A DNA stretch of 64,000 nt from Bombyx mori. Lineage: Eukaryota > Arthropoda > Insecta > Lepidoptera > Bombycidae. The translations under genes and the position numbers were made by a program. Positions 11,801-31,225 of the stretch are shown here, in pieces (within the stretch, counting starts at the first letter, position 1; every line of letters starts with the position of its first letter). The stretch spans positions 3,990,501-4,054,500 of the forward strand of contig NC_085132.1 of assembly GCF_030269925.1 (NCBI RefSeq). Direction: 5' to 3'. The notes beneath the pieces are model-generated. The model saw only the letters and a list, made by a program, of their open reading frames with translations. It ran no database searches and was not told where the DNA came from.

Positions 11801-14800
11801 GAGTGTAGAGCCGGAATATGAATGATTGATCTGTGAACAACTGTGACAGTAGTAGTGCAAATGAGGGTGTAGACATGTGTGTGTGTGGGCGCCTTTAGAC
11901 CTCCCAACAGTGATTAAGTTTTATAGGAAAGATAATCATAGGGTTTTCACACCCAAATGTAAAAATATTTAATGCATAGGCAAACCATTTGATAGGCAGC
12001 GGTTTGGCTTTGCTCCTGTCATTGCTGACGTCCATAAGCGACGGTAACCACACTAACCACTCACCATCAGATTGGCCGTATGCTCGTCTGCCTATACGAC
12101 AATAAAAAAAATATAAAAAAATGCCCACACTATCCCCGTCCCTGCCAATGAGTATCAAGTAGAAAATACGTATTTGACTTCATAAAAAGTTTGATAAAAT
12201 TAGATGTTTCTAAATAACACCACACCAGTGATTTAAATAGTAAGCTTAAAATGTATTTAAAGTATTTTTCATTTGTACAAAATAAAGATAAAATTAAGCT
12301 GTCATTTTCACCTATCGAGTTTATTTATAATTGCAGTTACAATCGACGCGGTATCGAACAAAGCGGAAAAGTGGCTAATTATGTTGAAACCGAGCAAATT
12401 GTGTCGATAATTTGTTCGGATAGCATCCACAGGGCTTCATTTGTACAGGTAAATTCACTATTAGAGTCATGCTTTTATCACTTTCAGCTTGAATGTTAGC
12501 ATCATCTATTTGTTACAATAGGAACTACTCAGTAAACACTAGCCCAAATACCCATACCCAATACCCAATATATATAAAAATGAAATGCTGTGCGTTAGTC
12601 TCGCTAAAACTCGATAACGGCTGGACCGATTTGGCTAATTTTGGTCTTGAATTATTTGTGAAAGTCCAGAGAAGGTTTAAAAGGTAAATAAATATGAAAA
12701 TACTCGGAAATAAATAAAAATAAAAATTTTGTTTTTCCTTTGATCCGTCCGTCGGACGGATTTATTTGTTTGTTGTAAGCTTATTTTATACAAAAGTTTA
12801 GGTCTTTTATTTATCGATTGAGGCACTACGAAGTCTGCCGGGTCAGCTAGTACCCAATATATTTTTCGAATAATGTAAAAAAATCAAAATAAATCTTATA
12901 AACTTACTGCACCGGTTTTGCACTGTCGTGATACCTAAAGATTATCTAAGTGAGCAGACAAGTTCACTCCCTTTTTGAAAACAAATACATTAGCCGGGTC
13001 GTCCTTCTTTCATGTAATAGTAGAGCTTAAACTCAACTTGATTTCTGCAAAGAGGTACTAAAACAGGCTCTTAATCTACAATCAGCTGGGTAAGACCTTA
13101 GGGCATAATACCGATGCGAAAATTGTAGGGAAAATACTAAATATTTATATATATAGGGTGTCCCACAAAAGGTATATGAAGCCGTATCAATAACGTAGGT
13201 AACATAGTAACCGTAATGACTACTTCGTGTAGTCGAACGCAATTAAATATACACTATTAAGAATAAAACAAAAACAACCTGATAAAATTTAAATGGGACC
13301 ACATGATAAGTAATAAAAAAAAAGCACCAGCTTTCAAATAAATAAAAAGATTCATCAAAATCAGTTATACCTAGAAATAAGTAATAAATTAACAGTACAA
13401 AACACAAAATACAGTTAATTAAGAGCAACTTCCTTTTTTAAAAGTTCGATCTAACTTAGTATCGATTCAAAGTAATTTTTATATTGAAATCCAATTATCT
13501 CCCAATATTTCGTCTGCCCCTAACGTCCTACCTCCTCAATTTACGTGATCATGATCCACGCAAATTACTAGGATCGCAGTACATAATATCGGGAAATGAA
13601 TAAATTTCAGAATCGTCAATTGAATCCGTCACAACACAAGACTATAAAATATCAAGTTTTTAAATCCACATAACGTCAATTTAGTTAACTGTTATTTTTG
13701 GGCAGTAAACTGACAACGGTCATGCACTGTTAACTTTGTAGTAACTGTACATGACTGAACAATGTTTGGGATCTTTTTATTTTGCCTACGTATCTTTCTT
13801 TTTTTTTTTTTGCCGGTAGCCACGGTATGGCATCAGAAAACAGAAAGTGTATTCTGAGGGTATAGCTATTCGGGTTTCATTTTGCTTGATAGGCGAGCTC
13901 GTAGCGTTCTACCTGAGAGAATTGCTAACATCTGCTCTAGCAAAGAGCAGTGCTTTGCCGTGTCTAACACCGGAACGCAGTGGTGACCCATTGAGAAGAT
14001 TCGCAATTCGCGCAAAACTGGACATTTAAAAAGCCCGCACGGGTGGAAGATCTACCACATGTACTTTTAGGATGCTTAAATAAAAGCGGCTCTAAACAAA
14101 ATAATAGAATGTTAATTTTTATGAAAAAAATTTACGATCTGTTTTTTATGGCGGGGATCATGGCCTCCTGGATTTTTTTAGCCGCGCATGCGCGTGTCGT
14201 AACCAAAGGTTTCGCCACATACATAAATTTGTATTGAATGTAGAATATTAATTTTGTTCCTTGGGCACAGGTACGAGGTTCGGTTCCAATCTTCTGGAGC
14301 CAGCCTGAATACAAGTTTCGTCCGCCACCACGACTTGATAAAAGTATGTACGAATTTGCGCTTGGACTAACTTTTACTTGGAAATAGAGATGCCAGTAGC
14401 ACATTCAAACCGCTGTCTACCGCTACATTTTTTTGTTTATTTAGACGGGAGGATGAGCTCACAGCCCGTCTGATGTTAAGTGGTTACCGTCCTCATTTAA
14501 ATAGCAAACATATTTTTTTTGTCATCGTTGCCCTAGCCGTTAAATATTTGTTGGAATTTTCGTTACTCAAGCCGTTAGCCCCGGCTTCGCCCGCGTGGGC
14601 AAGGAAAAGTGGCAATTGAAATTTTCTGAAGCGCCACTTAAATTTTCTAAAGATAATAAAACAGATTCCCTTGGTAATGAAATGCCTTTTTCGGGATAAA
14701 AGGTAGGCTATATCACAATCCTGGCTTAAAACTGACACTTTTATATGTATTTTTTTGTTGATCTTAAATGGGTGGACGAGCTCACAGCGCACTTGGTGTT

Positions 14801-17800
14801 AAGTGGTTACTGGAGCCCATGGACATCTACAACGTAAATGCGCCACCCACCTTGAGATATAAATTCTAAGGTCTCAAGTATAGTTACAACGGCTGCCCCA
14901 CCCTTCAAACCGAAACGCATTACTGCTTCACGGCAGAAATAGGCAGGGTGGTGGAACCTACCCGCGCGGACTCACGAGGGGTCCTACCACCAGTAAGTGT
15001 ATGTACAATAATTATGCCAATTCGATGCTTCGTTTCGATTTCATAGAATGACAAACGAACACACTTCCCTTGAATTTTTTATATGGATTGGTACAAAATT
15101 CGTACAGCCGAAGAGGAGTCCCATGCCGCCTTCAAGAAGCATTTCGAAGAACAACTGAACACTTACAAGCAAGTGTGCATAGTGAACTTAGTCGAGCAGC
15201 AGGGCAGAGAACGCGTGATATGGGAGGCGTACGGCAACCACGTCCTCAAATACGACAACCCTAATCTCATATATGCGACCTTTGACTTCCACGAGTACTG
15301 GTAAGTGTACCAACAATTTTTTGTTACCCTTTTTGGGTTGAGCTAATTTTTACAAATATTTTGCAGGAATTGCTAAAGGATTTTTGAAAAAGAGTTCCTT
15401 TAAAAACATTAACCCCAAAAAAACAATGCTAAATTCACAGCAAAATAACTTTAATGGTTAATTATTAATCTTATTAACTTATTAGAAACGTTATACATAC
15501 GCGCGTTCACACACGTCCGTACAGGTCGATACTTAAGGCCTATAATCAAACTGGGCAAACAGTCGGTTTTCCGACGGTCCGTATTTTGTACGCATTAATA
15601 GAGAGTCGATCTATCGACATCTCGCGCGTTTTTTATATAAAAATATTGATTTGAGATAAATTACGCATTTGGGTCTAGTGCTCCGAAGCTATAGCAACAA
15701 AAACAATTAACTGTAAAATAAACAAAGTGTAGGCTGTTTTTATTTATTTCGTAAATGCGTTAGTTATCTGGTGTTAGGTGGTTAACGGAGCCCATAGATA
15801 TGGGCTGAATGTCCCCATCCATCTTTGGACATAAGCTGGAAGTGCCAATTGCATTTTGTAAAGGCTGTCACATCCTTCGAACTGAAATGCATTATTGCTT
15901 CGCGGCACATAAAGGTGGAATTACGATAACCGTCCCGAGCTTCTAATATGTTGTATCATCGATAAATGCCAATTGACAATCGCAATTCGTTGGTGTAATC
16001 ATAGAAGGCTGGCACTTTGAGAAGGCGGCGCGACATGAGAACCATCTTGTCGTAGCCGCTGGAAATTATATACCCGATTCTGTAGACCGAATGATAAATA
16101 GTTGACGTCGCCCAAAACACGTCATTACGGATCCTCCCGATCCATTAACGGTACCAAAAGCACTGGTCACCGTCTTCGTCGAACCCGTCGCTTGCGACGA
16201 AGGGCTCAACGAACGAATTAACCCACAGACGCAGCCCACTGAGTTTCTCGCCGGATCTTCTCAGTGGGTCGCGTTTCCGATCCGGTGGTAGATTCTGCGA
16301 AACACTGCCCTTGCTAGGGCCAGTGTTAGCAACACTCCGGTTTGAGCCCCGTGAGCTCACCTACATGTTAGGGCGAAGCTGAAATAGCCTCTCAAGGCTA
16401 TCAACATAGGTAGGAAAAAAAAAGGAACGCTGCTATCTAATTTCCGGTACATTCCTTAGCCTCCTTAAGCCATCCACGGGAACAGATGATGATGCTATTC
16501 TAAACCACATTGCCTAACAGTAGTGGATCTTGTAGGGTCTTGTGGTAGCAGTCGCGCGGAGGATTTGATGACTGTCCATTTAAATTCCAGCCGCGGTATG
16601 CACTACGAAAACGTGAGCATCCTCATCAACGCAATAGCGGACATAATAACCGACATGCGTTTCTGTTGGCGTGACGACCGCGGCGTTATATGCACGCAGA
16701 ACGGCGTCTTCAGAGTCAACTGCATCGATTGTCTGGATAGAACGAACGTCGTACAAGTGGGTATATCGAAAAAAAAAAAGTGATATTGTCAATCATCATA
16801 TTAGATTATCTGTACGGTACCTTAAAAGTATCTATAAGCCGCGCAAATAAAGAAACGAATCTAAAATCGCGGCTGCGATCATGCGCTCTCACTCTAAACT
16901 ATTGCTGTCTTTAGTCGCACACGGCGCGTACTGCATGCAAAAAAATATCAATTCTGAATTTGTTACTGAGTTCGAGTTTTTTCACTTTCGAGTTGTGCGA
17001 CTTAGATGACTGGCAGCAAAAGTATCTATGGAAGTTGCATTCCAGGTGCGACCCCCCCCCCCCCCCTCTGCCAGGGCATAAAGTAAACTAAAGTACATTC
17101 TCATTTATTTTTTTATATTTTTTTACAATAAACTACTTTTTCTTTCTATTTTTCTTTTTTTTTGTTGACCCTATTTGCTGACCTTCGTTTCTTTATTGGC
17201 GCGGCTTATAAACATTTATCTGTGATTGTAAACTGTCAGTAGTAGTAGTTCTATTTTTCCAATTAGAAAGGCAAAGGTATCATACTATACAGCCTAATCT
17301 TTTGTATATTCTTTTTTATGAAAAATGATATGGAGCGAAATGATGGGAAGTTGATTAATTTGAAATATTATTGCGTGATGTTATATAGCATATCGCCTTG
17401 CTCGATCAATGGACTATCTAACATTGAAAGAATTTTTCAAATCGGACCAGTAGTTCCTGAGATTAGCGCGTTCAAACAAACAAACTCTTCACATTTATGA
17501 TATTAAGCATAGATATATCGCTCGTATAGACTGCTATCGCTAAATACGTGTTGGAGTTGCAACTGTGCCGGCTGGGGTTGGGCACGCCTGGCTGTGGTCT
17601 GCCGCCGCCGCTTCAGAGGGCGTTCCTCACCATGTGGGCGGACAACGGCGATGTCGTGTCGAGGCAATACGCCGGAACGAAGGCCCTCAAGGTTTGTCAC
17701 TACAATAAATTAATAATAACTAGTGGTTCCCCGGTATTTTTTACTGGTGGTAGGACCTCTTGTGAGTCCGCACGGGTAGGTACCACCACCCTGCCTATTT

Positions 17801-20800
17801 CTGTCGTGAAGCAGTAATGCGTTTCGGTTTGAAGGGTGGGGCAGCCGTTGTAACTATACTTGAGTACTTAGAACTTATATCTCAAGGTGGGTGGCGCATT
17901 TACGTTGTAGATGTCTATGGGCTCCAGTAACCATTTAACACCAGGAGGACTGTGAGCTCGTCCACCCATCTAAGCAATAAAAAAATAAAAATAAAGAAAA
18001 CAAGACTCGAAGATAGCAAAGCTGTTCGGCACACGTATTTTATGTCCAATGTAGAGTTCGAAGCCATGACCAACCTAGCAGTCCGAGTGACTAATTGCTG
18101 CGCCACCAGGTAATGTATACATGCATTGACTTTTATTTATACAGCGTACAGGGAATAGTTCTGAACTCTCGACTCGTGACAGGATGAGATTAAGACAAAA
18201 CGGTTGAACTGTTTAAATTTTCAAAAGGTTTTGCGAAGAGCCGTGTACGACAGAAATAAAAAAAAATTGCACGCGCGGACACCGATGCGTACAAAAAAAA
18301 TTATGGCAACATAAGTAATTTAATTACACATTTAATTGTACTGGCAACACAGTCGAATTCCACATTTATTATACGTACATCCCTATTTTTGTTCTATTGC
18401 GCGCCTTACTCTGTTGTTTTAAATATTCATAGCGTCGTATGATTTTAAGGGGGACTACACACGTACAGGCGAACGAAAGATCACGGGAATGATGAAGGAC
18501 GGCGTTGCATCAGCAAATCGGTAAGTTTGTTGATTTTCGTGTACCTCTTTAATATTCAATGTTTACAAAGTACGTAGAATATCTACAATTTCATAATGGC
18601 AATTATTAAATAATCGGAAACCATTAAAACATGATTATTGTGTATGAACTCTCTCTGTGCTAAAGAAGCTAAAGAAGATTTTTTTAATGATTAAATTTAT
18701 GAAAAACCGTTCTCGCCGGAAATTTTCAAGTTGGCATTTTCAAGTTTCATGGCTCCTACGATATAACTGTACAAGTTGCTACTTATTTTGTATTTACTTG
18801 CATATTTTTAGTATTTATTTGTATTTTATCGTATGTAAGTCTATCTTATTTTGTATTTATTTTTCACATGTGTATATAATAAGTATATATTTTTAAGTAA
18901 GTTTATTAAGATATAGCACCGTCCGTGCTAGTTTGCTTATTCCTCTCCCTGCAAGGTTGCCTGGAAGAGATCGCTTTTAGCGATAAGGCCGCCAATTTAT
19001 GTCACCGTCTATTTTTTGTTTTATATGCTTACTCTGTACATGTGGTGTTAAATAAAGAGTTATATTATTATTATTTTTTTAAACTTTAAATGGCTCTCAT
19101 GTAAAGTTGCAATACAGTTAAACCAAATAGCATTTCAGCCCTCGATATGTACTTAATTATTATATATTATTAAATTTATTAATATTCCAGATATTATTTG
19201 TCAACTTTCAAGGATGCGCTGCGTCAAGTGGCCATAGACGTAATGACGGGCGAATCGAAAACGATACCGGAACAACTGATCGTGCCGGACTGCAGCCGAT
19301 GCACTTCCGTTAAGGTGCTCACGTTTGACGTGCGTGCATGAATCAGCTTTCGATATAGGCCTAAACTAATTTCTGAAATACGACGTTAATGAGACGTTTC
19401 CGAAGTTGAAAGCGGAATACATTGCTGCTCTAACAAACAAAAAAAACATTAGCTAAGTAAAGCTTGTCGTTTTAGCGAATTCGAATTCGATTTCTCAAGG
19501 TGTGTGGCGCATTTACGTTGTAGATGTCTATGGGCTCCAGTAACCACTTAACACCAGGTGGGCTGTGAACTCGTCCACACATCTAGGCAATAAAAAATAA
19601 ATACTTGAAGACGCAATGTAATACATCAAAATTTCCGGATTGAAAACGCTTAAACCAAATTTGTGCTACTCTCACAGACAATGCACTAGGTCCATAAACA
19701 TCGCAATTTTTTTCCGCGGCTTGCGTTGCATTTTTACCTTTTTTGTAGTAAAATTTTAAAATGTATCGAGTTTCTTCATTAGATTCACACATCTTGACAT
19801 TACGAAAACTAAATAAAAATCACACATTTTCCTAATTTGAATTTGGTTAATTATCTTCCTTAAAATTTAAACTTTTAATGATACCAAAACCAGCCAGATA
19901 CCAATAGTATAGCCAAAGAGATTTTATTACAATTTCAGACATACTATAATGCGTAAAGATTTTTCCCCAACCTATTACTTAAAGACGCAATGTATGTTGA
20001 ACAAATTTAAATTGTCTCTTTTAAGTTCGTTGTCTCAGGGACAAAAATGTCGCACTTAAATTGGGTCTTGAAATTTTAAGTAACTTAATGACCGGCCGTG
20101 AATGTAAGTGGACAATTGAAGGTAGACAAGCGTACATCGAATCCACAGGTGTGAGGTTAACATCGCTCGGTAATGCTTTAGACAGTCTACTGTCCAAGAC
20201 CTTAATGTTATTGAATCAAAATATCAAAAGCATTCATAAATCATAGCCTTCAAACAAAAACGTACGTCTGCCTCGCTAATATTTGCAAAACGAAGCGACC
20301 AACGACCGCAATCCCATCCAGCTTCAACCAATATCATAAGAATCATTAACAGCCTATTTTAGTCCAGTGTTGGACATAGGCCTCGTCCATGGTTCGCCAT
20401 GCGACCCGATCCTCGCCACAGCCACTCGTCTCCATCGGCTGCCCGATATTCTGCGTATATCGTAGCTCTAATTACTGGCCGTCCCACACTACTTTTACCG
20501 GTCAGCGTTCTCCAGAACTCATCCCGCTCATCGATTATTGGCTGTTGGCAGATATGACCGGATTCATTGACAATTCAACTTGCTTATGCCTTGAACTATG
20601 TGGGTAGCTTTGGTTCTCTGGCGAATGACCTCGTTTTGGATATGATTCCTCAATACAACACCGAACATAGTCCATATCATAGCGCACCTTTTTTAAATTG
20701 CATATGTCGGTGGTGGTTACCGAAGCACATAGACATCTACAACGTAAATGCCGCCATCCACCTTGAGATATAAGTTCTAAGGTCTCGATATAGTTACAAC

Positions 20801-23800
20801 GGCTGCCCCACCCTTCAAACCGAAACGCATTTCTGCTTCACGACAGAAATAAACAGGGTGGTGGTACCTACCCGTGCGGACTCACAAGAGGTCCTACCGC
20901 CAGCAAAAGCTGAGCAATTTTAAACTCTGAAATATCGTAATAGCATTAGACTTAATATCGAAACTTTGACATTTAATTGAATTCGATCGATGATTCTCAA
21001 AGTTTTGTTCTTTCCAAAAAAAGGATCAAGCTGCCCCGGACACCGCTGCGATGGCGCAACACGTCAAGTCCCTAATCGACGACTGCAAGAAAATGTTGGT
21101 CGATACAGAACCGATACTTGGATCGTGGGGTCTGATCGACGCGGATCCACAGTAAGGAAACATCGTTGTACTTGATATGAGGACATCAAATGAAATGTTC
21201 AAATATCGCAGACAAATAGAAATTGTTAGCAATGAAATACGGGCTCGACGCGTATACTACGTATATAGCATATTTAAAAAAAACGGCGTTAAAAATTAAC
21301 ATTATTATTTATTGTCATTATTATTAGGGAGTCCAACACTCATATAAATATTAGCCTATCCATTAAGTGCATGTATTGTCTACATGGATAAGTTTCAAGT
21401 CAATCGGATGCATGGTTCAGTAGTTATAACGGAACATCCGTAAAAACCACTGTAGATTTATATGTTTATACTAGCTGACCCGGCAGACTTGGTAGTGTCA
21501 ATCGATAAATAAAAGACCTAAACTTTTGTATAAAATAAACTTGAAACAAACAAAAGGAATCCGTCCGACGGGGAACACATCAAAGGAAAAACAAAATTGT
21601 TATTTGTTATTTAATTCCGAGCTTTGTCATATTTTTCTACCTTTTAAACCTTCTCTGGACTTCCACAAATAATTCAAGACCAAAATTTGCTAAATCGGTC
21701 TAGCCGAGTTTTAGCGAGACTAACGAACAGCAATTCATTTTTATATATCGACGCTTGAAAGGTAAACATGACTAAGCAACAATGCGTGAACTTTACAGTA
21801 GACTAATTTAAAGTTGAAATACCTGAAAAATTATATTTTAACGAATCTAGCTGTAGGATTGAAATGATTTTAATAGACCTAGAAATATATATTTTTTTGC
21901 GCATCGAATATGGTTATTGCCTATCATTTATGTACAAAGCAATTATTGTCGCTTAGTCACGTTTGCCTTTCAAGCGTCGATTTATAGATGTTATTCCTTC
22001 ACCGTGGAAATCAATCGTGAACATTTGTTAAGTACGTATTTCATTAGAAAAATTGGTACCCGCTTGCGGGATTCGAACACCGTTCCATGCAGATACCAAT
22101 GCACCGGACTTGACCGGATGTCTTATCCATTAGGCCACGACGACGACAAACATTTATATATGTATTTACATTGCGTAGCACGGGCGATCCCCACGAAAGG
22201 GAAATGGATAGCGTATTAGTTCTGACTAGTGAAGTACGTATTTCATTAGAAAAATTGGTACCCGCCAGCGGGATTCGAACACTGTCCCATGCAGATACTA
22301 CTGCACCGGACGTCTTATCCTTTAGGCCACGACGACGACAAACATTTATATATGTATTTACATTGTGTAGCACGGGCGATCCCCACGAAACGGAAATGGA
22401 TAGCGTATTAGTTCTGACTAGTGAAGTACGTATTTCATTAGAAAAATTGGTACCCGCCAGCGGGATTCGAACACTGTCCCATGCAGATACTAATGCACCG
22501 GACGTCTTATCCTTTAGGCCACGACGACGACAAACATTTATATATGTATTTACATTGTGTAGCACGGGCGATCCCCACGAAACGGAAATGGATAGCGTAT
22601 TAGTTCTGACTAGTGAAGCCTACTACGTGGCGGACTACGACGAGACGTCGGACAGGCTGCTGTCCGTGCAGAGGGTGCCGCTGCGTGACGTCATCTCCAT
22701 AGAGCTGGGAACGTTCGACGCAAGTTCCACTGTGAGTAACACCCTTACAGTCCTCTCCCTCCTCCAATCGATCGCTCATTGCTGAGCCTCCTGAAACGCC
22801 CGCCTAAGATGCTAACACTAACCCAAATACCCGAAAATGGGTTTAAAACTGGAATTTAGTTAGTCTATTTTAAAAGATCTCATGTAAATGTGGTAATTAT
22901 GTTATAGTTTTTTTTTACAAATTCGTAGAGGATAAATTAATCATTTAGTATATAGACATTTCACGTGTAATTTATGTCTACATCGGTGTGTTTAGTGCGA
23001 TTTTTGTAACTTCTCGATTGCGTAAAAGTTAACTCAAATTTGCACGGATTTCCCTTGGAACAGTTTCCCTTCGTTTGCCGCTAGAGACGCTATTCCAACT
23101 CCATACAAATTTGAGTTAACGTTTACGCGATCGACCACGTTAAAAAACTCGCACTAAGCACGCTTTTCTCGTCATTTATAGTCTCTCATGTCGGTCAGTG
23201 GCAGAGTGAAGTGCGTCGCTCAGTCTTGTGTCCACGGACCGCTGTATTTATTTATTATACATTGCGCAAGACGATAGATACGTAATGAAAACAAACAACG
23301 GAATCATGGTCAAATGTACCGGATGGATGTGTGGCGGGTAGCCATCATACAACGCAAGATATTTGACAGATGCCAGAATCTCGCTTACGAAATTTTCAAG
23401 ATAAGCTTGCATATATACAAGTTCCTAACAACAACATTCGGACCGTCGGTCTACCGAGCAATATCACTCGTTCGATGGAAGATCTGCCCTTTCGTCGTTA
23501 AACCAAAGATGTAATTCTTTCAGATTTTCGGCGTCGGTCGCAAGTCAAATTCGGAGACGGTATACTGCATGCGCATCAATTACAGTTACAACGGCGATAG
23601 TGGATACTTCCACATGTTCAGGTCGACCTCGCTTCGGTTCTTCAACAACATGGCGGTCGCAATCAACACCAGAGACGAGATGATAGGTGAGTAAATTTAT
23701 AATGTAATTAAAACCCTTCTCAGTGCCCTATGTCAGGTTCAGTGGTTACCAGATGCCATGGTAATGAATAACATAAGTGTCATCACCATCCTTGTAAAGA

Positions 23801-26800
23801 AAATTAATTTTTTTATTGCCCTTTCAGGCCGATGAGCATACGGTCCACCTGATGGTAAGTGGTTACTGTCGCTCATGGACGTTAGCAATGCCAGAGGCAG
23901 AGCCAAGCCGCTGCCTACCGTTTAATGCTGTTACGCGCTGGGGTTCGGGATAAATAAAAAGTTCCACCAAAGTAAAACAAAAAACTGTATTCAACACTTA
24001 GAACACTTAAAACACTTCACAAACACTTTAAAATTCTCATTTCGCTTCTTCCGCCTCGCTTCAGGTGATCTGTTCGCTGTTTCGCTTCGAGTCGTTCCGA
24101 TTACTGACTGACTACGTGCCATCTCTACAACGCTTTTATAGCCGATACCACATCCCTAGAATTCTCGAGAACATTCCACACATTTCTAGTATTGTGCTTC
24201 CGCTATCCGACAATAGATGGCGTTGTACTTCTTGAGCGTTCTAGGTGCTGCTAAATCCTTCGATATTCGTTCGACTATTCGGCGATAGATGGCGTTACTC
24301 TTAACGGCGTAACAGTATGTTAATTATGTTTTTCTCAGAATCGCTGCACTCCATATGCGAATCCATGGTGGTGGCCCGTGAGGTCGCCAAGCTGCCGCCG
24401 ATACCCTTCCACGATGGCATCAAATTGGAAAAGAGGAAATCGAAGGTATGCGCTTAATTATTCTCATGCGCTATTAGTTACCTCATCGAGAGCGCCTTAC
24501 AATATAATTAAACATTCATGCCACTAGGACATACGTGTTTAAATATTTAATTGCGTCGTGGCCTAAAGGATAAGACGTCCGGCACATTCGTATCGAGCGA
24601 TGCACCGGTGTTCAAATCCCGCAGGCGGGTACTAATTTTTCTAATGAAATACGTACATTACAAATGTTCACGATTGACTTCCACGGTGAAGGAATAACAT
24701 CGCATACTAAAAATCAAACCCGCAAAATTATAATTTGCGTAATTACTGGTGGTAGGACCTCTTGTGAGTCCGCACGGGTAGGTACCGCCACCCTGCCTAT
24801 TTCTGCCGTGAAGCAGTAATGCGTTTCGGTTTGAAGGGTGGGACAGCCGTTGTAACTATACTTGAGATCTTAAAACTCATATCTCAAGGTAGGTGGTAAT
24901 CGCTTAACACCAGGTGGGCTGTGAGCTCATCCACCAACCTAAGCAATAAAAAATAAATATGTATTTAACTCTTATTTTGTTTAATTAAGTTATTTCAAAT
25001 TCGTATCCTGCATCCACGTTATAAACAAACTACCCTCAAGTTCTGGAAATTATATTAAGGAGAATACTGTACATACAGGTACATCCGAATCACACTCAAG
25101 CCGGGGGAGCCCGTGCGTCTCCTTACCTGGACCTCTCTCGTCTGCCGACCCTCACCAGGAACGTCAGCGAGACGCAACTGGTGGCCGACATTCGGAGCGT
25201 CGGTGAGTCTGCAACTTTACCCACGTCTAGATAGGGGGTAGTGTGTCACGAATCAAGTTGACCGTATTTTAAAGTAAATAAGGTTCATTTTACAATGACA
25301 AATTTCTATGAAGATTATTTTTTTAAATAAAAGAACACTTATAGCGGCATAACTATAGTAGTTAGATATATGCGGTCTCGACCATTTTTGTAAATAATAA
25401 TGTGTTCTACAAAGTCGTAGTACATTATTTTATTCTATCATCAATAGTTTTCGCAGGGCAAGCGATTTAAAGTATATTTTAGGAAATTTTTTTACACCTC
25501 GGGTTACATTATTGGAGTTTTAGTAAGGATCCCAAATTTTTTTCAAAAAAGATTATAGCTTATGTCACTCGGGAATAGTGTAGCTTTCAAACAGTGAAGG
25601 AATTTTTCAAATCGGTTCAGTAGTTTCGGAGCCTATTCAATACAAACAAACAAACAAATCTTTTCTCTTTATAATATTAGTATAGATATGTTTAACGCAA
25701 GATTTAGTCGTGAATTTATTTGTTCACTGAATTTTTAATTACATAACTCTTTAATGCTTAGTGGTAAATTAGTAGGGCGTCCGTATTATCAATAAGTCCT
25801 GTTTATGCAAAATAATCTTAATTTATGATAAATCATAACATCTTGACCGTCATACTTTGTAATAAACTATTGTCAGTTTTTGAATCATGATCACTGACTG
25901 CTGCTTGGAAAAATGCTTGTATATCGATTCCCGTGCAGACTTTTCTTTGAGGGTCTGAACCCTTTACATAATTGCATAACGATTTTGGGAGTATGTATAT
26001 AAAAATGTTTTAATAAGAAAAAAAAAACAAACAGGAAAGACATTATTTTTCATGATTTATTACAAGGTTTAAAAATAAGTACTTAATACGGAAAAACACA
26101 TTGAAAACACTCATTGCAACAAAAAGAATATTAGGTCATAGTAGTACATAGTAAAATTATTATATTGTCCTTCAACTTATACCTACCCACCTTCTGAAGT
26201 AATATGAAAATTACTTTGAAACAGTGGCAGCTACCCACGAAATATAGATAAAGAACGAATTAACGTAAACACGTTAAAAATTGTCGCATAGACAGGTATT
26301 TAACAAACAGAACTCGAATAGAATGTCCAACTTGATTTAGGAATGAAAATCTAGTCCGACCTTTATGCGTATAATTTTAATGGCTATTTTTAATTGAACT
26401 CACGTTTCATGTTACGACGTTTCGTCTTCAGAGCCGCCTCGTGGTTCGACAAGTTCGGTGTTAAAACAACTTGTACTCTTGTCAACGCAAACAACACAAT
26501 ACAGAATCCTTCACGTTTCTCCCTCAAATCTCGTTAGTTTGAATATAATTTCTTTATGTATTTTGATTTTTAAATTTAACTTAATAATTCGTATTTCGGA
26601 TCCGTAGTTCAAGAAAGTACATCACGATTATTGATATTCGACTAGTGTGACCATAAGCTTCGGGAGAACTTTTGTCGAATTCTAGTAAAGCTTGTTGTAA
26701 CTATGTCGCCGTTGTAACTATACTGAGATCTTAAAACTTATATCTCAAGGTGGGTGGCGCATTTACGTAGTAGATGTCCATGGGCTCCAGTAACCACTTA

Positions 26801-29382
26801 ACACTAGGTGGGCTGTGAGCTCGTCCACCCATCTAAGCAATAAAAAATAAAAAAGCTTGGTAATGTCGTGGCTTTTGCCTGCGACAGCGGAAATCGATAT
26901 AACAAAACACGACCGTGTCACTGTCGTGATGTACACGTCAAGACATTTTAATTTGCGTACATACAATAAGTAGAACTTATTTTTTATTGCTTAGACAAGT
27001 GGACGGCAAACTTATTAGCCAAAGAGCCAAATATGAACATTAAAATAATAATAATAATAAAATCGGAGCCAAATCTGCTTGTTTAGTAAACTTTTATTAC
27101 ACTAAATATGTAGTGCATTAAATGCAGAGCCGCTCTTTGCCGGCCATTGGCTTATACCGACGAAAGAGCTCCTGGCCAAACTGCAATCTTACAGGGGTCT
27201 TAGATAACAAAAGCGCTACTGTCGCCACCCACCTTGTAATATCAGTTCGAAGTATCGGTTCTATAGTACAACGGCTGCCCCGACCTTCCAAGAAGCCGTA
27301 TTTATTCGGTGCGCATTATTTACTGATGGTAGGACCTCTTGTGAGTCCGTGCGGGTAGGTACCACCAAGCTGCCTATTTCTGCCGCGAAGCAGTTTTCGG
27401 TTTGAAGGGCGGAGCAGCCGTTGTAACTATACTGAGACTTTAGAACTTATATCTCTAGGTGGGTAGCGTATTTACGTTGTAGATGTCTATGGACTCCAGT
27501 AATCACTTAACACCAGGTGGGCTGTGAGCTCGTCCACCCATCTATGCAAAAAAAAAATAAAAAAAAAAATCACCAGCTATTGTACTTAAGCATATCTAAA
27601 AAGGTTATTCGTCGTCGCAGGATCGAAGGCGTTCAACAACATGACGGAACAGTTCAGCAAACTAAACAAACTCAGTCACTCTCTGAACGCCAGAGCTAGA
27701 CCGAGCCTCCAGCTAAAGTTCGACCAGAACACGACGAAAACGAAAAAATTATTCACGTTAGGTCAAAACAAAAGCGACAACAAGAAGAAGGGCAGCCTAT
27801 CGGACGGCATGAGCTCCGATTACTCGTCGGACGATGAAAACCGGACCAACATATTCGAGCCGACCCTGGACAACTTCGAGAACACGCAGCACTACATCGG
27901 GAAACCGAACAGTTCGGGAAACGAAAACGACTGCGAACTTATCGAGAATCCACTGTATTCATCGAAAATCGAACCAAACGACAACCAAGAAGTCTTCATC
28001 GCGAATGAAACACCGCCCGCCGTCAACTTGCCGAAAACGCCGACTAATATCGGCAAAGTAAACCCGTTCAATTCGGAGAGGGCGCCCGAAATACAAATCG
28101 AGACGGAAGGTTCCGGAAAACCGGCACCACCGAACTCTCTGATGCTCTCGCAGAAGCTGTCCCACAGCTCGAACGATGTCAATTATGGGGAGAGCGATGG
28201 GGTCAATTACCACGTGAGGTCGAACTCCCAGCACGAGATCGTGCTGAATATCGCATCGTCCCACAGCGAGTCCGCTTTGAGGCACCTCAACTATATCTCC
28301 AGTCCAGTTTCCAGCACCAGCACGACCAAAGACCTGGTGCTTTCGCCCTTAACGAAGCTGGCTAAAGGAGTACAAAATCTTGGTGCTAATTTAGATCCGA
28401 GGAAGATAAAGGTAGGTTGGAATTAATCATTTAGGTGTTTTTTTTTATTGTCCCTGTAAACACCGTCATACGGTCTCCATCTGTGTGCTCAGTGCGAGGT
28501 TTTTTTTAACGTTCTCGATAGCGTAAAAGTTAGCTCATATCTGTATGGAATGGGATCGTTCGCCTGCGTTTGCCGCTAGGGGCGCTGTTCCAACTGCATA
28601 CAAAATTGGGTTAACTTTTACACTATCGAGAACGTTAAAAAAAACCTCGCACTAAGCACAGATGGAGACCGTATGACGATGTTTACAGGGACTCGCACTA
28701 AGCACATGATAATGAATGGTTACCGTCATTGGCGGACATCAGTAACGTCAGGGGCCCAGCCAAGCGGCTACCTACAGGGCCGGCTTAGTTGATCATGTCT
28801 TATTAAGTCATGTCTTATTTTAATTTACTTTCTTATTTTTTTGAAAAATTATAATATGAAGTGAAATGAAATGAAGATGAATGAAATGAAGAGAATGAAG
28901 ATGATTAATTTGAGACATTAATCAACTGAGATGAAATGAAATGAGATGATATGGGATGAAAGATAGTCTCAGTAAAATGGTGGTTATTTACTTACTACTG
29001 AGACTTTTTCAGTGGGCTTTTTGAAGGATCCCGAGAAGCTACATCCAGCGGCTTTGTTTCATTTTCCCACATTTCTGCACTTTTACAGATGTTCAACAAT
29101 TAATATACTACCGTTATTACATATTTAAACCTGAAGTAATACTAAATTGTCAAAATAAAACAAATCACACAACTTCACTCCTCGCGTTCCCGCCAAAAAG
29201 TTCCCCTATACAAGATGATGCTCCTTACCTCTACCCTCCCTAATCTGAATTAATAACAATGACACAATTGTTCGATTCAGGGTTCAGCGGCAGTTAAGCA
29301 TGTAACGGAACAACAGTATGTCGAACATAGGAAGTTGCAGGAGAAATGGCGCGACTGTAACACCAGACTCGTTGCGTTGTAA
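8860..29382 (+). CDS. INPP5F: Phosphatidylinositide phosphatase SAC2 (INPP5F orthologue), 18 exons
   Basis: Sac-family lipid phosphatase, 1141 aa, close to the vertebrate length. INPP5F/SAC2 is known to remove 4-phosphate from phosphoinositides on early endosomes. Exons: 8860-8956, 9126-9499, 10258-10542, 10777-10961, 12337-12448, 14271-14343, 15108-15300, 16591-16756, 17530-17691, 18450-18520, 19191-19314, 21024-21151, 22563-22731, 23524-23686, 24339-24445, 25079-25202, 27621-28411 and 29281-29382; all phases agree. The Sac domain carries the catalytic CX5R(T) motif as CIDCLDRTNVV with Cys484 and Arg490. Other family blocks are DDRFFWNKHML, NVANYVETEQ, MWADNGDVVSRQYAGT and DGVASANRYY. Residues about 615-770 are the hSac2 domain (GSWGLIDADPH, then AYYVADYDE). 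Exon 17 encodes a Ser/Asn-rich region with an acidic patch MSSDYSSDDE. Intron 2 has a GC donor. Exon 13 is preceded by tandem copies of its own acceptor. Confidence 0.95.
9557..9806 (-). mobile_element. Bm1 SINE, 5'-truncated
   Basis: T-run, then TTACCTAGATGTGTGGACGA through to CCTACCACCATTAA. It lies 57 bp after the unusual GC splice donor at the end of INPP5F exon 2. Confidence 0.85.
11170..11608 (-). mobile_element. Bm1 SINE, full length
   Basis: One of the few copies that keeps the tRNA-like head. Reading backwards from 11608: GTCGTGGCCTAAAGGATAAG (A-box side), a B-box beginning GTTCGAATCCC, the stretch ending ACGTACTCAACAAATG, then the standard body and A-tail. It is about 440 bp long and sits in INPP5F intron 4. 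Confidence 0.9.
11612..11985. other. GC-richer unassigned intron stretch
   Basis: Part of INPP5F intron 4 with higher GC than its surroundings, including CACAGCGCGACGTCACACGC and a short TG-rich run. Neither strand gives an ORF with recognisable motifs. I see no splice-bounded exon or terminal repeat in it. Confidence 0.4.
11990..12120 (+). mobile_element. Second SINE family, copy
   Basis: GGCAGCGGTTTGGCTTTGCT, then GACGTCCATAAGCGACGGTA, GGCCGTATGCTCGTCTGCCT and a CAATAAAAAAAA tail. It has the same 3' end style as Bm1 but a different body. The same family recurs reversed at 14432-14500, 23813-23928, 28441-28790 (disrupted), 44650-44740 and 54476-54597. Confidence 0.65.
12560..12852 (+). mobile_element. 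Helitron-like non-autonomous element
   Basis: Contains the block CTAAAACTCGATAACGGCTG, then GAAAGTCCAGAGAAGGTTTA, an inverted GTCCGTCGGAC palindrome, and an end reading TGCCGGGTCAGCTAG. Ends of this kind (short hairpin then CTAG/CTRR, no target duplication) fit Helitrons. A reversed copy lies at 21474-21760. The family assignment is an inference. Confidence 0.5.
13862..14030 (-). mobile_element. Diverged jockey-like 3' end
   Basis: A worn copy in reverse. It keeps the order of the better copies (CTAGCAAAGAGCAGTGCTTT, then CACCGGAACGC, then CCCATTGAGAAGATTCGC) but with many substitutions. It lies in INPP5F intron 5. Confidence 0.4.
14432..14500 (-). mobile_element. Second SINE family, short fragment
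   Basis: TTTGTTTATTTAGACGGGAG, then GAGCTCACAGCCCGTCTGAT and TTAAGTGGTTACCGTCCTCA. This is the tail and first part of the non-Bm1 SINE, cut off early. It lies in INPP5F intron 6. Confidence 0.45.
14751..14996 (-). mobile_element. Bm1 SINE, 5'-truncated
   Basis: T-run, then TGGGTGGACGAGCTCACAGC through CCTACCACCAGTAA. It lies in INPP5F intron 6, about 110 bp before the exon 7 acceptor. Confidence 0.87.
15739..15945 (-). mobile_element. Old, diverged Bm1-like SINE
   Basis: Same block order as Bm1 (TCTGGTGTTAGGTGGTTAAC, then GGAGCCCATAGATATG, then CATCCTTCGAACTGAAATGC) but about a quarter of positions differ and parts are missing. It lies in INPP5F intron 7. Confidence 0.5.
16040..16420 (+). 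mobile_element. 5'-truncated jockey-like non-LTR element
   Basis: It begins inside the C-terminus of a reverse transcriptase ORF (reads roughly LVVAAGNYIPDSVDR). It continues through a 3' UTR with TTTCTCGCCGGATCTTCTCA and CTCTCAAGGCTATCAACATA, and ends in A9. No intact ORF remains. Same family as 31226-31495, 32872-33036 and 62665-63030. It lies in INPP5F intron 7. Confidence 0.7.
16835..17208. mobile_element. DNA transposon / MITE with 25-bp inverted repeats
   Basis: Left end TAAGCCGCGCAAATAAAGAA, then ACGAA; the right end is its complement with one mismatch (17184-17208). The target duplication may be TA. The 374-bp interior has no ORF, and holds a C15 run at 17052-17066 and long T-rich runs. 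It lies in INPP5F intron 8. Confidence 0.75.
17238..17345 (-). repeat. End fragment of the GGCGGGAA/CATTT interspersed repeat
   Basis: GTAGTAGTTCTATTTTTCCA, then GAAAGGCAAAGGTATCATAC and CAGCCTAATCTTTTGTATAT. It matches the start of the reversed copies at 47293 and 57679. Confidence 0.5.
17371..17508 (+). mobile_element. RTE-like non-LTR 3' tail fragment
   Basis: TTTTTCAAATCGGACCAGTA, GTTCCTGAGATTAGCGCGTT and CAAACAAACAAACTCTTCAC. The same tail is more complete at 61655-62071 and diverged at 25547-25687, where it ends TTATAATATTAGTATAGAT. The clade assignment is tentative. Confidence 0.5.
17741..17990 (+). mobile_element. Bm1 SINE, 5'-truncated
   Basis: TTACTGGTGGTAGGACCTCT through CACCCATCTAAGCAATAAAA. 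It starts 50 bp after the INPP5F exon 9 donor. Confidence 0.88.
19493..19600 (+). mobile_element. Bm1 SINE, 3' end only
   Basis: TCTCAAGGTGTGTGGCGCAT through CACATCTAGGCAATAAAAAA. It lies in INPP5F intron 11, directly before a 19-bp direct repeat and the mariner fragment. Confidence 0.8.
19613..19792 (-). pseudogene. Mariner-type transposase, N-terminal fragment
   Basis: The reverse-strand translation contains FYYKKGKNATQAA, then CDVYGPSALSVR and WFKRFQSGNFD. This is the helix-turn-helix start of mariner-family transposases. It then diverges into unrelated sequence; no catalytic DD(D/E) part is present nearby. A dead fragment in INPP5F intron 11. Confidence 0.8.
20250..20700 (-). mobile_element. 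Non-LTR (RTE-like) ORF 3' remnant
   Basis: The reverse strand reads ATGGACGAGGCCTATGTCCA followed by ACACTGGACTAAAATAGGCT, a signature common at the 3' end of lepidopteran RTE-type LINEs. The reading frame is broken. Boundaries are approximate. Confidence 0.4.
20705..20903 (-). mobile_element. Bm1 SINE, truncated at both ends
   Basis: TGGTTACCGAAGCACATAGA through GTCCTACCGCCAGCAAAA. It has lost the tail and the head. It lies in INPP5F intron 11, 120 bp before the exon 12 acceptor. Confidence 0.8.
21474..21760 (-). mobile_element. Helitron-like non-autonomous element (reversed copy)
   Basis: Starts ACTAGCTGACCCGGCAGACT and continues through CCGTCCGACGG, AAACCTTCTCTGGACTTCCA and GCCGAGTTTTAGCGAGACTA. 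It mirrors 12560-12852 and lies in INPP5F intron 12. Confidence 0.5.
21988..22616. repeat. Triplicated 192-bp unit: Bm1 head + splice acceptor + start of INPP5F exon 13
   Basis: Units begin at the same AGTACGTATTTCATTAG motif at 22031, 22233 and 22425. Unit 1 is 202 bp, with a 10-bp insertion near TTGACCGGATG; units 2 and 3 are 192 bp and almost identical. Each holds the tRNA-like head of a reversed Bm1 SINE, then TATATATGTATTTACATTG, an AG acceptor, and the first 54 bp of exon 13 (CACGGGCGATCCCCACGAAA onward). Only after unit 3 does the exon run on. A partial Bm1 precedes the array from 21988. The joint falls at a short AGTGAAG/AGTACG microhomology. Confidence 0.93.
22563..22731 (+). CDS. 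INPP5F: INPP5F exon 13 (hSac2 domain), the exon whose start is triplicated
   Basis: 169 nt, phase 2 in and phase 0 out. It reads HTGDPHETEMDSVLVLTSE, then AYYVADYDETSDRLL and VQRVPLRDVISIELG. Copies of its acceptor lie at 22178 and 22370, each followed by the same first 54 nt. The third acceptor (22562) gives the product that best matches the family. Either upstream acceptor keeps the frame open through to the donor at 22732. Confidence 0.9.
22980..23165. mobile_element. Fold-back MITE, copy 1
   Basis: About 60-bp imperfect inverted arms. The left has GTGTGTTTAGTGCGATTTTT and GCGTAAAAGTTAACTCAAAT; the right is the complement, ending ACTCGCACTAAGCACGCTT. The core reads TTTGCCGCTAGAGACGCTAT. 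Same family as the element within 28441-28790. It lies in INPP5F intron 13. Confidence 0.75.
23813..23928 (-). mobile_element. Second SINE family, copy interrupted by an LTR
   Basis: TTATTGCCCTTTCAGGCCGA, then GAGCATACGGTCCACCTGAT and CCAAGCCGCTGCCTACCG. It stops exactly where the solo LTR begins. It lies in INPP5F intron 14. Confidence 0.65.
23929..24314. mobile_element. Probable solo LTR
   Basis: 386 bp bounded by TGTTACGCGC and GGCGTAACA, the short TG...CA inverted termini typical of Ty3/gypsy LTRs. It contains a TATA-like CTTTTATAG at about 24133, and AATAGATGGCGTT and GATAGATGGCGTT as internal repeats. No primer-binding site or ORF is adjacent. No clear target duplication was found. It ends 24 bp before the exon 15 acceptor. 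Confidence 0.55.
24553..24957 (+). mobile_element. Bm1 SINE, nearly full length with internal deletion
   Basis: Has the tRNA-like head (GTCGTGGCCTAAAGGATAAG; B-box GTTCAAATCCC), then the full body. About 40 bp (the GTAGATGTCTATGGGCTCC block) are missing before the tail. It lies in INPP5F intron 15. Confidence 0.88.
25547..25687 (+). mobile_element. RTE-like 3' tail, diverged
   Basis: GGAATTTTTCAAATCGGTTC, AGTAGTTTCGGAGCCTATTC, ACAAACAAACAAACAAATC and an end reading TTATAATATTAGTATAGAT. It lies in INPP5F intron 16. Confidence 0.5.
26709..26855 (+). mobile_element. Bm1 SINE, 3' half
   Basis: GCCGTTGTAACTATACTGAG through CCATCTAAGCAATAAAAAAT. It lies in INPP5F intron 16. Confidence 0.85.
27326..27556 (+). 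mobile_element. Bm1 SINE, 5'-truncated
   Basis: TACTGATGGTAGGACCTCTT through CCATCTATGCAAAAAAAAAA. It ends about 65 bp before the exon 17 acceptor. A further diverged Bm1-like stretch lies just upstream (27217-27300, GCCACCCACCTTGTAATATC) facing the other way. Confidence 0.85.
28441..28790. mobile_element. SINE split by fold-back MITE with extended palindrome
   Basis: The reversed second-family SINE starts at 28441 (TTTTTTATTGTCCCTGTAAA) and resumes at about 28708 (TGATAATGAATGGTTACCG). Between them is a fold-back MITE of the 22980 family with a TTTGCCGCTAGGGGCGCTGT core. The palindrome runs on past the MITE, because an inverted copy of the SINE head (28661-28691) lies between two copies of the MITE end CTCGCACTAAGCACA. 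It lies in INPP5F intron 17. Confidence 0.75.
28858..29205 (-). repeat. GGCGGGAA/CATTT interspersed repeat, reversed copy
   Basis: An ATGAAATGAAATG-type run, then GATCCCGAGAAGCTACATCC, ending with CTCGCGTTCCCGCCAAAAAG. It ends 75 bp before the last INPP5F exon. Confidence 0.6.
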
Positions 29383-31225
29383 CGATTATAATTAATTAAG
29401 CTTTTTTTTGACATATTTTAAAAAATTTTTTTTTTTCGTTTATTACGTACGCGCTACGAGCGGAAACGTTGCGTGGAAAGTGAATATCGATTTGACTAAT
29501 TTATTTGAAATTTTGTGTTTTTTTTATATAATAATGACTTTACATTCCCAATACATCTTAAATATTCTGTGTGAAAATCGAAAATTCCAGAACGTATTTT
29601 AATTCATCTCGTATTAATTATAGACAAATGTGTGATTGATTGGAACTATATAGAAAAACGATATTTATTTTCATTTTAAAGATCGTTTAAATTTATGACG
29701 CTAATTCTATCTCAGAAACTATTTACTTTCGCCACAATACTTGGTGACTGTTATTAAATTTACTATAATATGAAGTTAAATTAAAATTAATGTAATGAAA
29801 ATAATAAATAGTTCCATTAGTGAATGAATGAATGATGAATGAATGATCAATGAAGAATGAGTGAATGAATGGTGTAATGATCATGACATGAATAGACACG
29901 TTTAGTGTATCAGTCGAATACTATTTTTATGTTTTAATGGGTTCGTTTTAAGACGTCTCCGCTCGATGCGTTTGCATGCTCGTATTTCAATTGAGATCTT
30001 TAGGTATTCTTATAGTGTTAAAGAAAAATAGTACAGTATTTTATTTTGTTTGACAAAAAAAACGAATTTATTATTATCTGTGTTAATTATTTATTTGTTT
30101 ATTAAATAGTCTACAATTTTAAATTCCAAATGTAATTAATGTTTAATATTCCAGTGTTATTTATAATTATTTATTGATAATATCCTTTTATTGATGAAAC
30201 GAGCACAATAATGTTGCCCACCTAATAAATAAAAAAATGTTACTGTATTAACCAATTAGTTAAATAGTGTAGTTTGTGTTACGAAGTATTTAATCAGATA
30301 GTATTTATAATATGTTTATATTCGCAAATAAAGACCCGTTTGAATACTGATAATAGTAAAATGCGGGAAAATTATTATTCATGAAATTGAATGTATTTAG
30401 TAACATCATGGCCATACACAAATTACAAAATCAGCCTTGCGGTATGATCATTCTTATGCTCTTGTCTCTATGGGCGGTTGTAGTCTTCGAAGACTAATAG
30501 TTGCCAACGTTAATTCTGAATAATGTATGTCCAATAAATGTCCCGTGTTCAACTGGGTATCTTGAAGACTGCGACGCGGCCTCCTAGATTGAAATCATCT
30601 CGATTATCTGTGTGAAATACACATATGTATTTTTTTTAGATAATCAGAGTCTGGGTTGTATTGTGTTCTCATACGTATTACACGCGACTATGATAAATCT
30701 TTCGGTCAGTGATTGTGGATTAACATTTATTTGGTTACATTTTAAGCTTAGTAATTAAAAAAAGTAGAAAAAAACGTGTGGGATTTGAACCAATTAAAGA
30801 TATTGTCTTTCGAAAAAAAATGTAGAACGGGTCTTAAAAATAGAGATCGCTTTAATCATTGAAATTAGCAAAATCGTATATAAAATAGGTTCTATTGAAT
30901 TATATTAGCAGGGTTTTGACATTCTGCCGCTAGATCTATATTTATGATAAGTCAATTACGTGAATGTTGTCCCTTATAATAATATATCGAGCCTAATTAA
31001 TGACACGCCTATAAATTTGAATACGCAAGGCCCATGCATATTCCTGATTTTTTTAAAACGCATTCTGTGTTTCACCGAACGATTGTGATGTAAGATTTTT
31101 ATTAGAAACAGCCTCGAAGCGGGTCGAAATCGTCTGAGGTCCGAAGACTTGTGCTACCATGAAGAGGGTAAATCCTTCGTAGTTACGTATTCAGCGAAGT
31201 ATTTATGCACCATATCGAGGGGTAA

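What the first reader, a model, noticed from the sequence alone, without database searches (positions are those of the whole stretch)
22031..22731. A SINE head, a splice acceptor and the start of an exon triplicated in frame inside the SAC2/INPP5F gene
Seen directly: three tandem units, two of exactly 192 bp (64 codons) and one of 202 bp. Each contains a reversed Bm1 tRNA-like head, the same acceptor (AG at 22178, 22370 and 22562) and the first 54 nt of exon 13. From any of the three acceptors the phase-2 frame from exon 12 runs open to the true donor at 22732. The gene could thus make proteins with 0, 64 or 128 extra residues, largely SINE-encoded, in the hSac2 domain. A duplicated acceptor that keeps the frame through transposon sequence is rare. 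Near-identity of units 2 and 3 implies a recent event, and copy number may vary.
Basis: seen in the sequence. Interest (0 to 1): 0.88.

Follow-up and report, generated by a model that had tools for sequence, protein, structure and literature searches.

The report
Triplicated splice acceptor in moth SAC2
In a moth genome (likely silkworm) the last part of one intron, with a piece of a mobile element, and the start of the next exon of the SAC2/INPP5F gene stand three times in a row, each with its own possible splice acceptor; the only full-length matching product found has no extra sequence, so the extra copies are likely mostly silent rather than a source of new protein forms.

Summary
Three head-to-tail units (202, 192, 192 bp) cover the end of intron 12 and the first 55-56 nt of exon 13 of a single-copy SAC2/INPP5F gene. 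Acceptors at 22178, 22370 and 22562 all read in frame to the donor after 22731. The units share a flank found in 0 of 11 other copies of the repeat, so they are tandem copies of one SINE insertion. They meet at a 3-bp microhomology (AAG). Unit 1 likely split off first, units 2 and 3 later.

A 1142-aa protein encoded on a 4208-nt contig (hence spliced, since the gene spans 20 kb here) has no insert. Insert words occur in 0 of 127 retrieved proteins. Using it would give a 55-nt mini-exon, a frameshift and an early stop, so only 3 of 8 possible splice paths stay in frame. Frame keeping has a chance level of about 3.5%.

Most likely this is a near-neutral tandem duplication across an intron-exon boundary, with the last acceptor used. 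The same anatomy is published for a potato RdRp gene. Acceptor use in carriers is untested.

The parts
21024..21151 (+). exon 12 of SAC2/INPP5F (ends ...GAC GCG GAT CCA CA|, phase 2)
   Evidence: exact splice solution against P0001, 18 of 18 residues around the intron
21987..22148 (-). 5' part of a reversed dispersed repeat (SINE; name Bm1 recalled), the founder copy, which alone keeps its left continuation
   Evidence: 84-87% to other full-length copies over window 21987-22150 in the loci L002-L008 and in two window copies, 77% to a third; 5' end seen where the copies diverge after ...CGACGACGAC
22031..22232 (+). unit 1, 202 bp: SINE head, acceptor, first 54 nt of exon 13 (55-56 with the shared AAG)
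22233..22424 (+). unit 2, 192 bp
   Evidence: one substitution from unit 3
22425..22616 (+). unit 3, 192 bp, runs on into the rest of exon 13
22177..22178 (+). acceptor AG of unit 1 (TTGCGTAG|C); predicted decoy
   Evidence: open frame, 553-nt exon; score 2.40 bits, 4 of 16 other acceptors of the gene score lower
22369..22370 (+). acceptor AG of unit 2 (TTGTGTAG|C); predicted decoy
   Evidence: open frame, 361-nt exon; 3.31 bits, identical to unit 3
22561..22562 (+). acceptor AG of unit 3, the one that gives the protein without insert
   Evidence: P0001 reads DADPH|TGDPHETEMD without insert; exact splice solution 21151/22563
22179..22233 (+). potential 55-nt mini-exon 1, with donor-like GAA|GTACGT after 22233
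   Evidence: donor 5.28 bits on a matrix from the gene's own 16 GT donors, 3 of which score lower; 93 of 1165 GTs in the gene score as high
22371..22425 (+). potential 55-nt mini-exon 2, with donor-like GAA|GTACGT after 22425
   Evidence: same donor score
22563..22731 (+). exon 13 as used in P0001, donor ACT|GTGAGT
8860..29383 (+). coding span of the SAC2/INPP5F gene, 18 coding exons (end of the last exon approximate)
   Evidence: tblastn of P0001 and splice solution; single copy in the genome for the hSac2 part

Best explanation
Three tandem copies of an intron-exon boundary (SINE piece, acceptor, first 55 nt of exon 13) stand in a SAC2/INPP5F gene, likely made by two successive duplications, and the spliceosome is predicted to use mainly the last acceptor (22562), leaving the two upstream ones as mostly silent decoys. 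Shown: the array, the shared 3-bp AAG at every unit junction, one SINE insertion as the source, three in-frame acceptors, a donor-like site at each junction, and a matching product without insert. Inferred: a first microhomology-based tandem duplication made unit 1 and a second unit; after both had changed, the second was duplicated again (units 2 and 3). Inferred: exon 13 is recognised as a 169-nt exon between the last acceptor and its true donor, so the normal protein is kept and selection on the extra units is weak. Predicted: occasional use of an upstream acceptor gives either an in-frame form with 64 or 128 extra residues or, if the junction donor is also used, a 55-nt mini-exon, a frameshift and a stop, and thus decay of the mRNA.
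For: Array and frames. All three units carry the same locus-specific flank after the SINE 5' end, which none of 11 other repeat copies has, and unit 1 alone keeps the SINE's left continuation. Differences that can be polarised against up to 12 other copies: unit 1 derived at unit positions 34 and 89 and by the 10-bp insert (absent from 11 of 11 other copies), units 2 and 3 jointly derived at 35 and 54 (51 less clearly, 7 to 3), unit 2 alone at 69, position 67 unclear because the copies have a third base; this nesting fits two steps. P0001: 1142 aa on a 4208-nt contig, while the coding span here is about 20.5 kb with 17 introns, so the contig must be spliced RNA or cDNA; it has no insert and reads HETEMD, as units 2 and 3 and not unit 1 (HEREMD). 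Insert words in 0 of 127 retrieved proteins. A query of P0001 with one 64-aa insert, words drawn from the insert region, brought 57 proteins among 69 candidates, none with the insert words. Exon 13 beyond the copied part has 61% GC against 42% for the SINE-plus-acceptor part. Partial exonic tandem duplications are common in flies: a cited survey counts 624 among 1901 duplications in 15 lines (passage in PMC2891723).
Against: P0001 is one contig from an unnamed source; it differs from the window at three places (one residue, one 1-residue and one 2-residue length difference), so its donor may carry fewer units and then says nothing on acceptor choice. The protein set is clustered at 90% and shows representatives only, so rare isoforms can be hidden; P0001 stands for 16 members that I could not see. 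Units 2 and 3 have identical acceptor sequences, so nothing in the acceptor itself favours the last one, and classic competition work (recalled) found that the 5'-proximal of two equal acceptors can win. The insert would fall in a loop of low confidence between strands 645-653 and 667-673 of the model (mean pLDDT 50.5), so a longer protein is not excluded on structural grounds.
Confidence: 0.64

Rival explanations
1. Nascent mini-exons (intron gain by boundary duplication): the junction donors GAA|GTACGT are used, so transcripts carry one or two 55-nt copies of the exon start, and the 137-nt SINE parts between them act as new introns. Because 55 is not a multiple of 3 these would be frame-shifted and would act as poison exons that lower SAC2 output.
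For: Donor score 5.28 bits, above 3 of the gene's 16 GT donors, including that of exon 12 itself (4.27). Five of 8 enumerated splice paths use a junction donor and all five hit a stop (codon 71 of the segment starting with exon 12 in four, 135 in one). The same anatomy gave a real new intron in a potato RdRp gene (abstract and passages of PMC4974935).
Against: No transcript seen; P0001 has no such piece. 93 of 1165 GTs in the gene region score as high, so the score alone is weak. The two Drosophila and potato precedents keep the frame or were selected for it; here the frame is lost.
Confidence: 0.17
2. One reading: real alternative acceptors that make SAC2 proteins with 0, 64 or 128 extra residues, partly SINE-coded, in the hSac2 domain.
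For: All three frames open; acceptor scores 2.40, 3.31 and 3.31 within the gene's range of -0.24 to 7.10; the exon 12/13 junction is at residue 657, in a loop of the model (655-665, pLDDT under 50). TE pieces in silkworm reading frames are on record: 308 protein-coding Iso-Seq transcripts (passages of PMC8476886).
Against: Insert words in 0 of 127 retrieved proteins; P0001 lacks the insert. The only substitution between units 2 and 3 in the would-be coding part changes an amino acid (T to N), which gives no sign of constraint. Long exons of 361 or 553 nt would have to be chosen over 169 nt.
Confidence: 0.12
3. Assembly or haplotype artefact: the true locus has one or two units.
For: Units 2 and 3 differ by one base only, which could be two alleles of one unit placed side by side. 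No reads are available here.
Against: Unit 1 differs from the others by 8-9 bases and 10 bp, so two units at least are distinct. The genome is in 30 contigs of 461.7 Mb in all, which suggests long reads that would span a 0.6-kb array. The gene is single copy in it.
Confidence: 0.07

Closest known systems
Intron gain by tandem duplication crossing an intron-exon boundary: potato RdRp gene PGSC0003DMG402000361 (PMC4974935; abstract and passages seen)
   Same: A tandem duplication spans the end of an intron and the start of the next exon; acceptor and upstream signals are copied; a GT that was not a donor before comes to stand after the exon piece.
   Different: In potato the donor comes from the exon itself and the new intron is seen in transcripts. 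Here the donor-like GTACGT comes from the SINE and is put behind the exon piece by the junction, there are three units, the mini-exon would shift the frame, and no transcript uses it as far as seen.
Novel introns by tandem duplication of exon sequence in Drosophila (PMC2891723; abstract and one section read)
   Same: Tandem duplication supplies splice sites.
   Different: There the copied piece is exonic with a proto-splice site and the new intron is fixed and old; here the copied piece holds the original acceptor and the copies are 95-99% alike.
Transposable-element exonization in Bombyx mori (Iso-Seq survey PMC8476886; abstract and passages seen)
   Same: TE sequence next to or within an exon of a protein-coding gene.
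   Different: There the TE part is seen in mature transcripts; here it is not. The paper's main text does not hold the words INPP5F, SAC2 or SINE.
SAC2/INPP5F phosphatase (human hSac2 domain solved, PDB 4xuu)
   Same: The gene itself: Syja_N and hSac2 domains, 85% identity over the whole protein to the Dendrolimus orthologue.
   Different: No other retrieved orthologue has the insert.

Membership tests
SAC2/INPP5F | Sac domain (PF02383) followed by hSac2 domain (PF12456) | tested here: met
   285 and 77.5 bits on P0001, above cut-offs 27 and 26
SAC2/INPP5F | Sac catalytic motif NCxDCLDRTN (motif recalled) | tested here: met
   RVNCIDCLDRTN at 481-492 of P0001, coded by exon 8 in the window
Intron gain by boundary-crossing tandem duplication | tandem duplication that spans an intron-exon boundary | tested here: met
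Intron gain by boundary-crossing tandem duplication | each copy keeps the acceptor and gains a usable donor | tested here: inconclusive
   acceptors kept; donor-like GAA|GTACGT at both inner junctions, 5.28 bits, but 93 of 1165 GTs score as high
Intron gain by boundary-crossing tandem duplication | the new intron is spliced in mRNA | tested here: inconclusive
   not seen in P0001; the donor of P0001 may lack the array; no RNA reads available
TE exonization | TE-derived sequence in mature mRNA or protein | tested here: inconclusive
   0 of 127 retrieved proteins hold insert words; only cluster representatives could be seen
Alternative 3' splice site exon | two or more acceptors used in transcripts | not testable with these tools
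   only one matching product, with the 22562-type junction
Bm1 SINE | member of a dispersed high-copy repeat | tested here: met
   40 other matches, 88-94%, lower bound; head and body together at window 24531-24960 (by eye)
Bm1 SINE | tRNA-derived head | tested here: inconclusive
   ARAGORN 0 genes, Rfam 0 matches at E<=0.1; A- and B-box-like words by eye; name recalled, no published Bm1 sequence was compared

The most novel reading that the evidence does not exclude
A SINE fixed next to a splice acceptor served as a ready-made intron: boundary duplication set its antisense GTACGT behind a copied exon start, so one event created complete new exon-intron units (acceptor, 55-nt exon, donor, 137-nt intron), repeated twice and caught before fixation or loss. 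Depending on donor use the same array makes either poison mini-exons or in-frame 64- and 128-residue insertions in the hSac2 domain, so unit number would tune SAC2 output between strains.
Probability: 0.13. Interest if true: 0.68.

Novelty: new member of a known kind. Interest (0 to 1): 0.32.

Why it matters
If the upstream copies are silent, this is a clean young example of how a gene tolerates a duplicated splice acceptor. If they are used, it is a natural experiment with three near-identical acceptors in one pre-mRNA, in which exon-definition and acceptor-proximity rules make opposite predictions, and a recent, datable case of intron or exon birth seeded by a SINE.

Tried and rejected
Three independent SINE insertions: rejected, since all units share the locus-specific flank and exon piece. 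A second gene copy or retrocopy as the source of P0001: the 24 matches of P0001 in the own genome place all hSac2-part exons on C26 only; the other matches (C12, C20) are Sac-domain relatives. Insert-like forms in other insects: P0125 and P0126 have 28 and 31 extra residues exactly at the exon 12/13 junction, but the sequence is unrelated and they look like genomic frames running through a short intron (inference). P0121 scored best but has no insert word and looks like a faulty gene model. A selection test on the insert was not attempted, one substitution being too little. Dating: divergence 0.043 (units 1 and 3) and 0.005 (2 and 3) give 7.4 and 0.9 million generations at a recalled rate of 2.9e-9, with a very wide error for the second. 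My simple splice matrices do not separate true from false sites well: 168 of 1031 AGs in the gene region score as high as the real acceptor at 22562. A first splice scan with recalled matrices found few true exons and was dropped. The literature searches that led nowhere: for this locus; no paper on this array was found in searches of the held open-access library.

Full report
What is there. The window holds a SAC2/INPP5F gene on the + strand. P0001 (1142 aa, E 9.9e-161 for residues 450-700 of my query) aligns to 18 coding exons from 8860 to about 29383, and for each of the 17 introns an exact GT-AG (16) or GC-AG (intron 2) solution reproduces the protein around the junction. Exon 12 is 21024-21151 and exon 13 is 22563-22731. 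Pfam gives Syja_N at 50-441 and hSac2 at 622-734. The hSac2 part is single copy in the genome. The host is a moth by its named relatives (Dendrolimus, Manduca and other Lepidoptera head the list); silkworm is likely from the genome size and repeats, but no call names the species.

The array. Units of 202, 192 and 192 bp run from 22031 to 22616. Each holds part of a reversed dispersed repeat, a 28-nt stretch with the acceptor, and the first 55-56 nt of exon 13. The junction between units reads TAGTGAAGTACG; the exon reads TAGTGAAGCC and the repeat TTAAGTACG, so AAG is shared and the breakpoint cannot be placed within it. The repeat piece of unit 1 runs on to the left to 21987, while units 2 and 3 start at the junction, which marks unit 1 as the left end and unit 3 as the right end of the original stretch. 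After the repeat's 5' end all three units carry the same flank, which 0 of 11 other copies carry: one insertion, then tandem duplication.

History. Against other copies (up to 12 informative per site) unit 1 has its own changes (unit positions 34 and 89 and a 10-bp insert absent from 11 of 11 copies), units 2 and 3 share changes (35 and 54, less clearly 51), and unit 2 has one more (69); at 67 the copies show a third base, and positions 134 and 159 lie outside the repeat. At 159, in the exon piece, unit 1 codes R where P0001 and many orthologues have T. This nesting fits a first duplication, divergence, and a later duplication of the second unit.

Frame. From each acceptor the exon 12 frame is open to 22731. 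This is less striking than it looks: 532 of 5000 dinucleotide shuffles (379 of 5000 mononucleotide shuffles) of the 137-nt non-exon part stay open in that frame, and a third of lengths keep the frame, which gives about 3.5%. Because units 2 and 3 are copies, it is one coincidence, not two. Of 11 other repeat copies, 10 are open in at least one frame in this orientation.

The junction sets GAA|GTACGT behind each copied exon start. On a matrix made from the gene's own 16 GT donors it scores 5.28 bits; 3 of the 16 score lower in leave-one-out, among them the donor of exon 12 (4.27); the true donor of exon 13 scores 6.18 in leave-one-out. But 93 of 1165 GTs in the gene region score at least as high, so this is a possibility and no more. 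With it there are 8 ways to get from exon 12 to the true donor. Three are in frame (169, 361, 553 nt); five include at least one junction splice and all five are shifted and reach a stop.

Transcript-level evidence. P0001 lies on a contig of 4208 nt, though its coding exons spread over about 20.5 kb in this genome, so the contig is spliced. It goes from DADP to HTGDPHETEMD without insert. Its T matches units 2 and 3 and not unit 1. It differs from the window at one residue and two short length changes, so it comes from another individual, which may have fewer units. A search with one insert in place and words drawn from the insert region returned 57 proteins among 69 candidates; a search with the 223-aa frame over the whole array returned 5 proteins among 7991 scored. 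Of the 127 proteins held, 0 have the insert words. 123 cover the junction; 62 of them have no gap at all and 61 have a gap, which lies at the junction in two only (P0125, P0126; 28 and 31 residues, unrelated sequence, likely introns read through); 4 are partial. Limits: 90% clusters, representatives only, 120 of 299 hits listed.

Structure. An AlphaFold2 model of P0001 with 30 rows has mean pLDDT 50.5; the hSac2 part has blocks of 44-83. The exon 12/13 junction (residue 657) lies between strands 645-653 and 667-673, in a stretch (655-665) under 50.

Comparison. The anatomy matches the published potato RdRp case of a tandem duplication across an intron-exon boundary (abstract and passages of PMC4974935). 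Such partial exonic duplications are frequent in populations: PMC2891723 (section read) cites 624 of 1901 fly duplications. TE pieces in silkworm coding frames are on record in 308 Iso-Seq transcripts (passages of PMC8476886).

Verdict. A real, young, tidy triplication of a splice acceptor, most likely near-silent. The more exciting readings (in-frame isoforms, SINE-seeded mini-exons) are testable with existing long-read RNA data and are not excluded.

Noticed in passing
window 21742-21986: A roughly 245-bp element with inverted ends of about 42 bp lies directly left of the SINE remnant; 39 other near-full-length places at 93-97% identity in the genome among the 40 scored. It looks like a young MITE family nested in other repeat pieces.
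   Followed up: partly
window 22044-22619, - strand: The antisense strand of the array is also an open frame of 191 codons from stop to stop, a by-product of the 192-bp period.
   Followed up: no
window 9500-9501: Intron 2 of the gene has a GC donor (CAG|GCAAGA), the only non-GT donor of 17.
   Followed up: no
proteins P0125, P0126: In two unnamed insect contigs the frame runs through what looks like a short intron at the same exon 12/13 position, adding 28 and 31 residues in frame.
   Followed up: partly
protein P0064: A Plutella xylostella protein of 808 aa joins Pfam transposase-type domains with a stretch 65% identical to this hSac2 region; gene-model fusion or a real chimera.
   Followed up: no
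window 34719-35783, - strand: A 354-codon open frame with repeated zinc-finger-like motifs (by eye).
   Followed up: no
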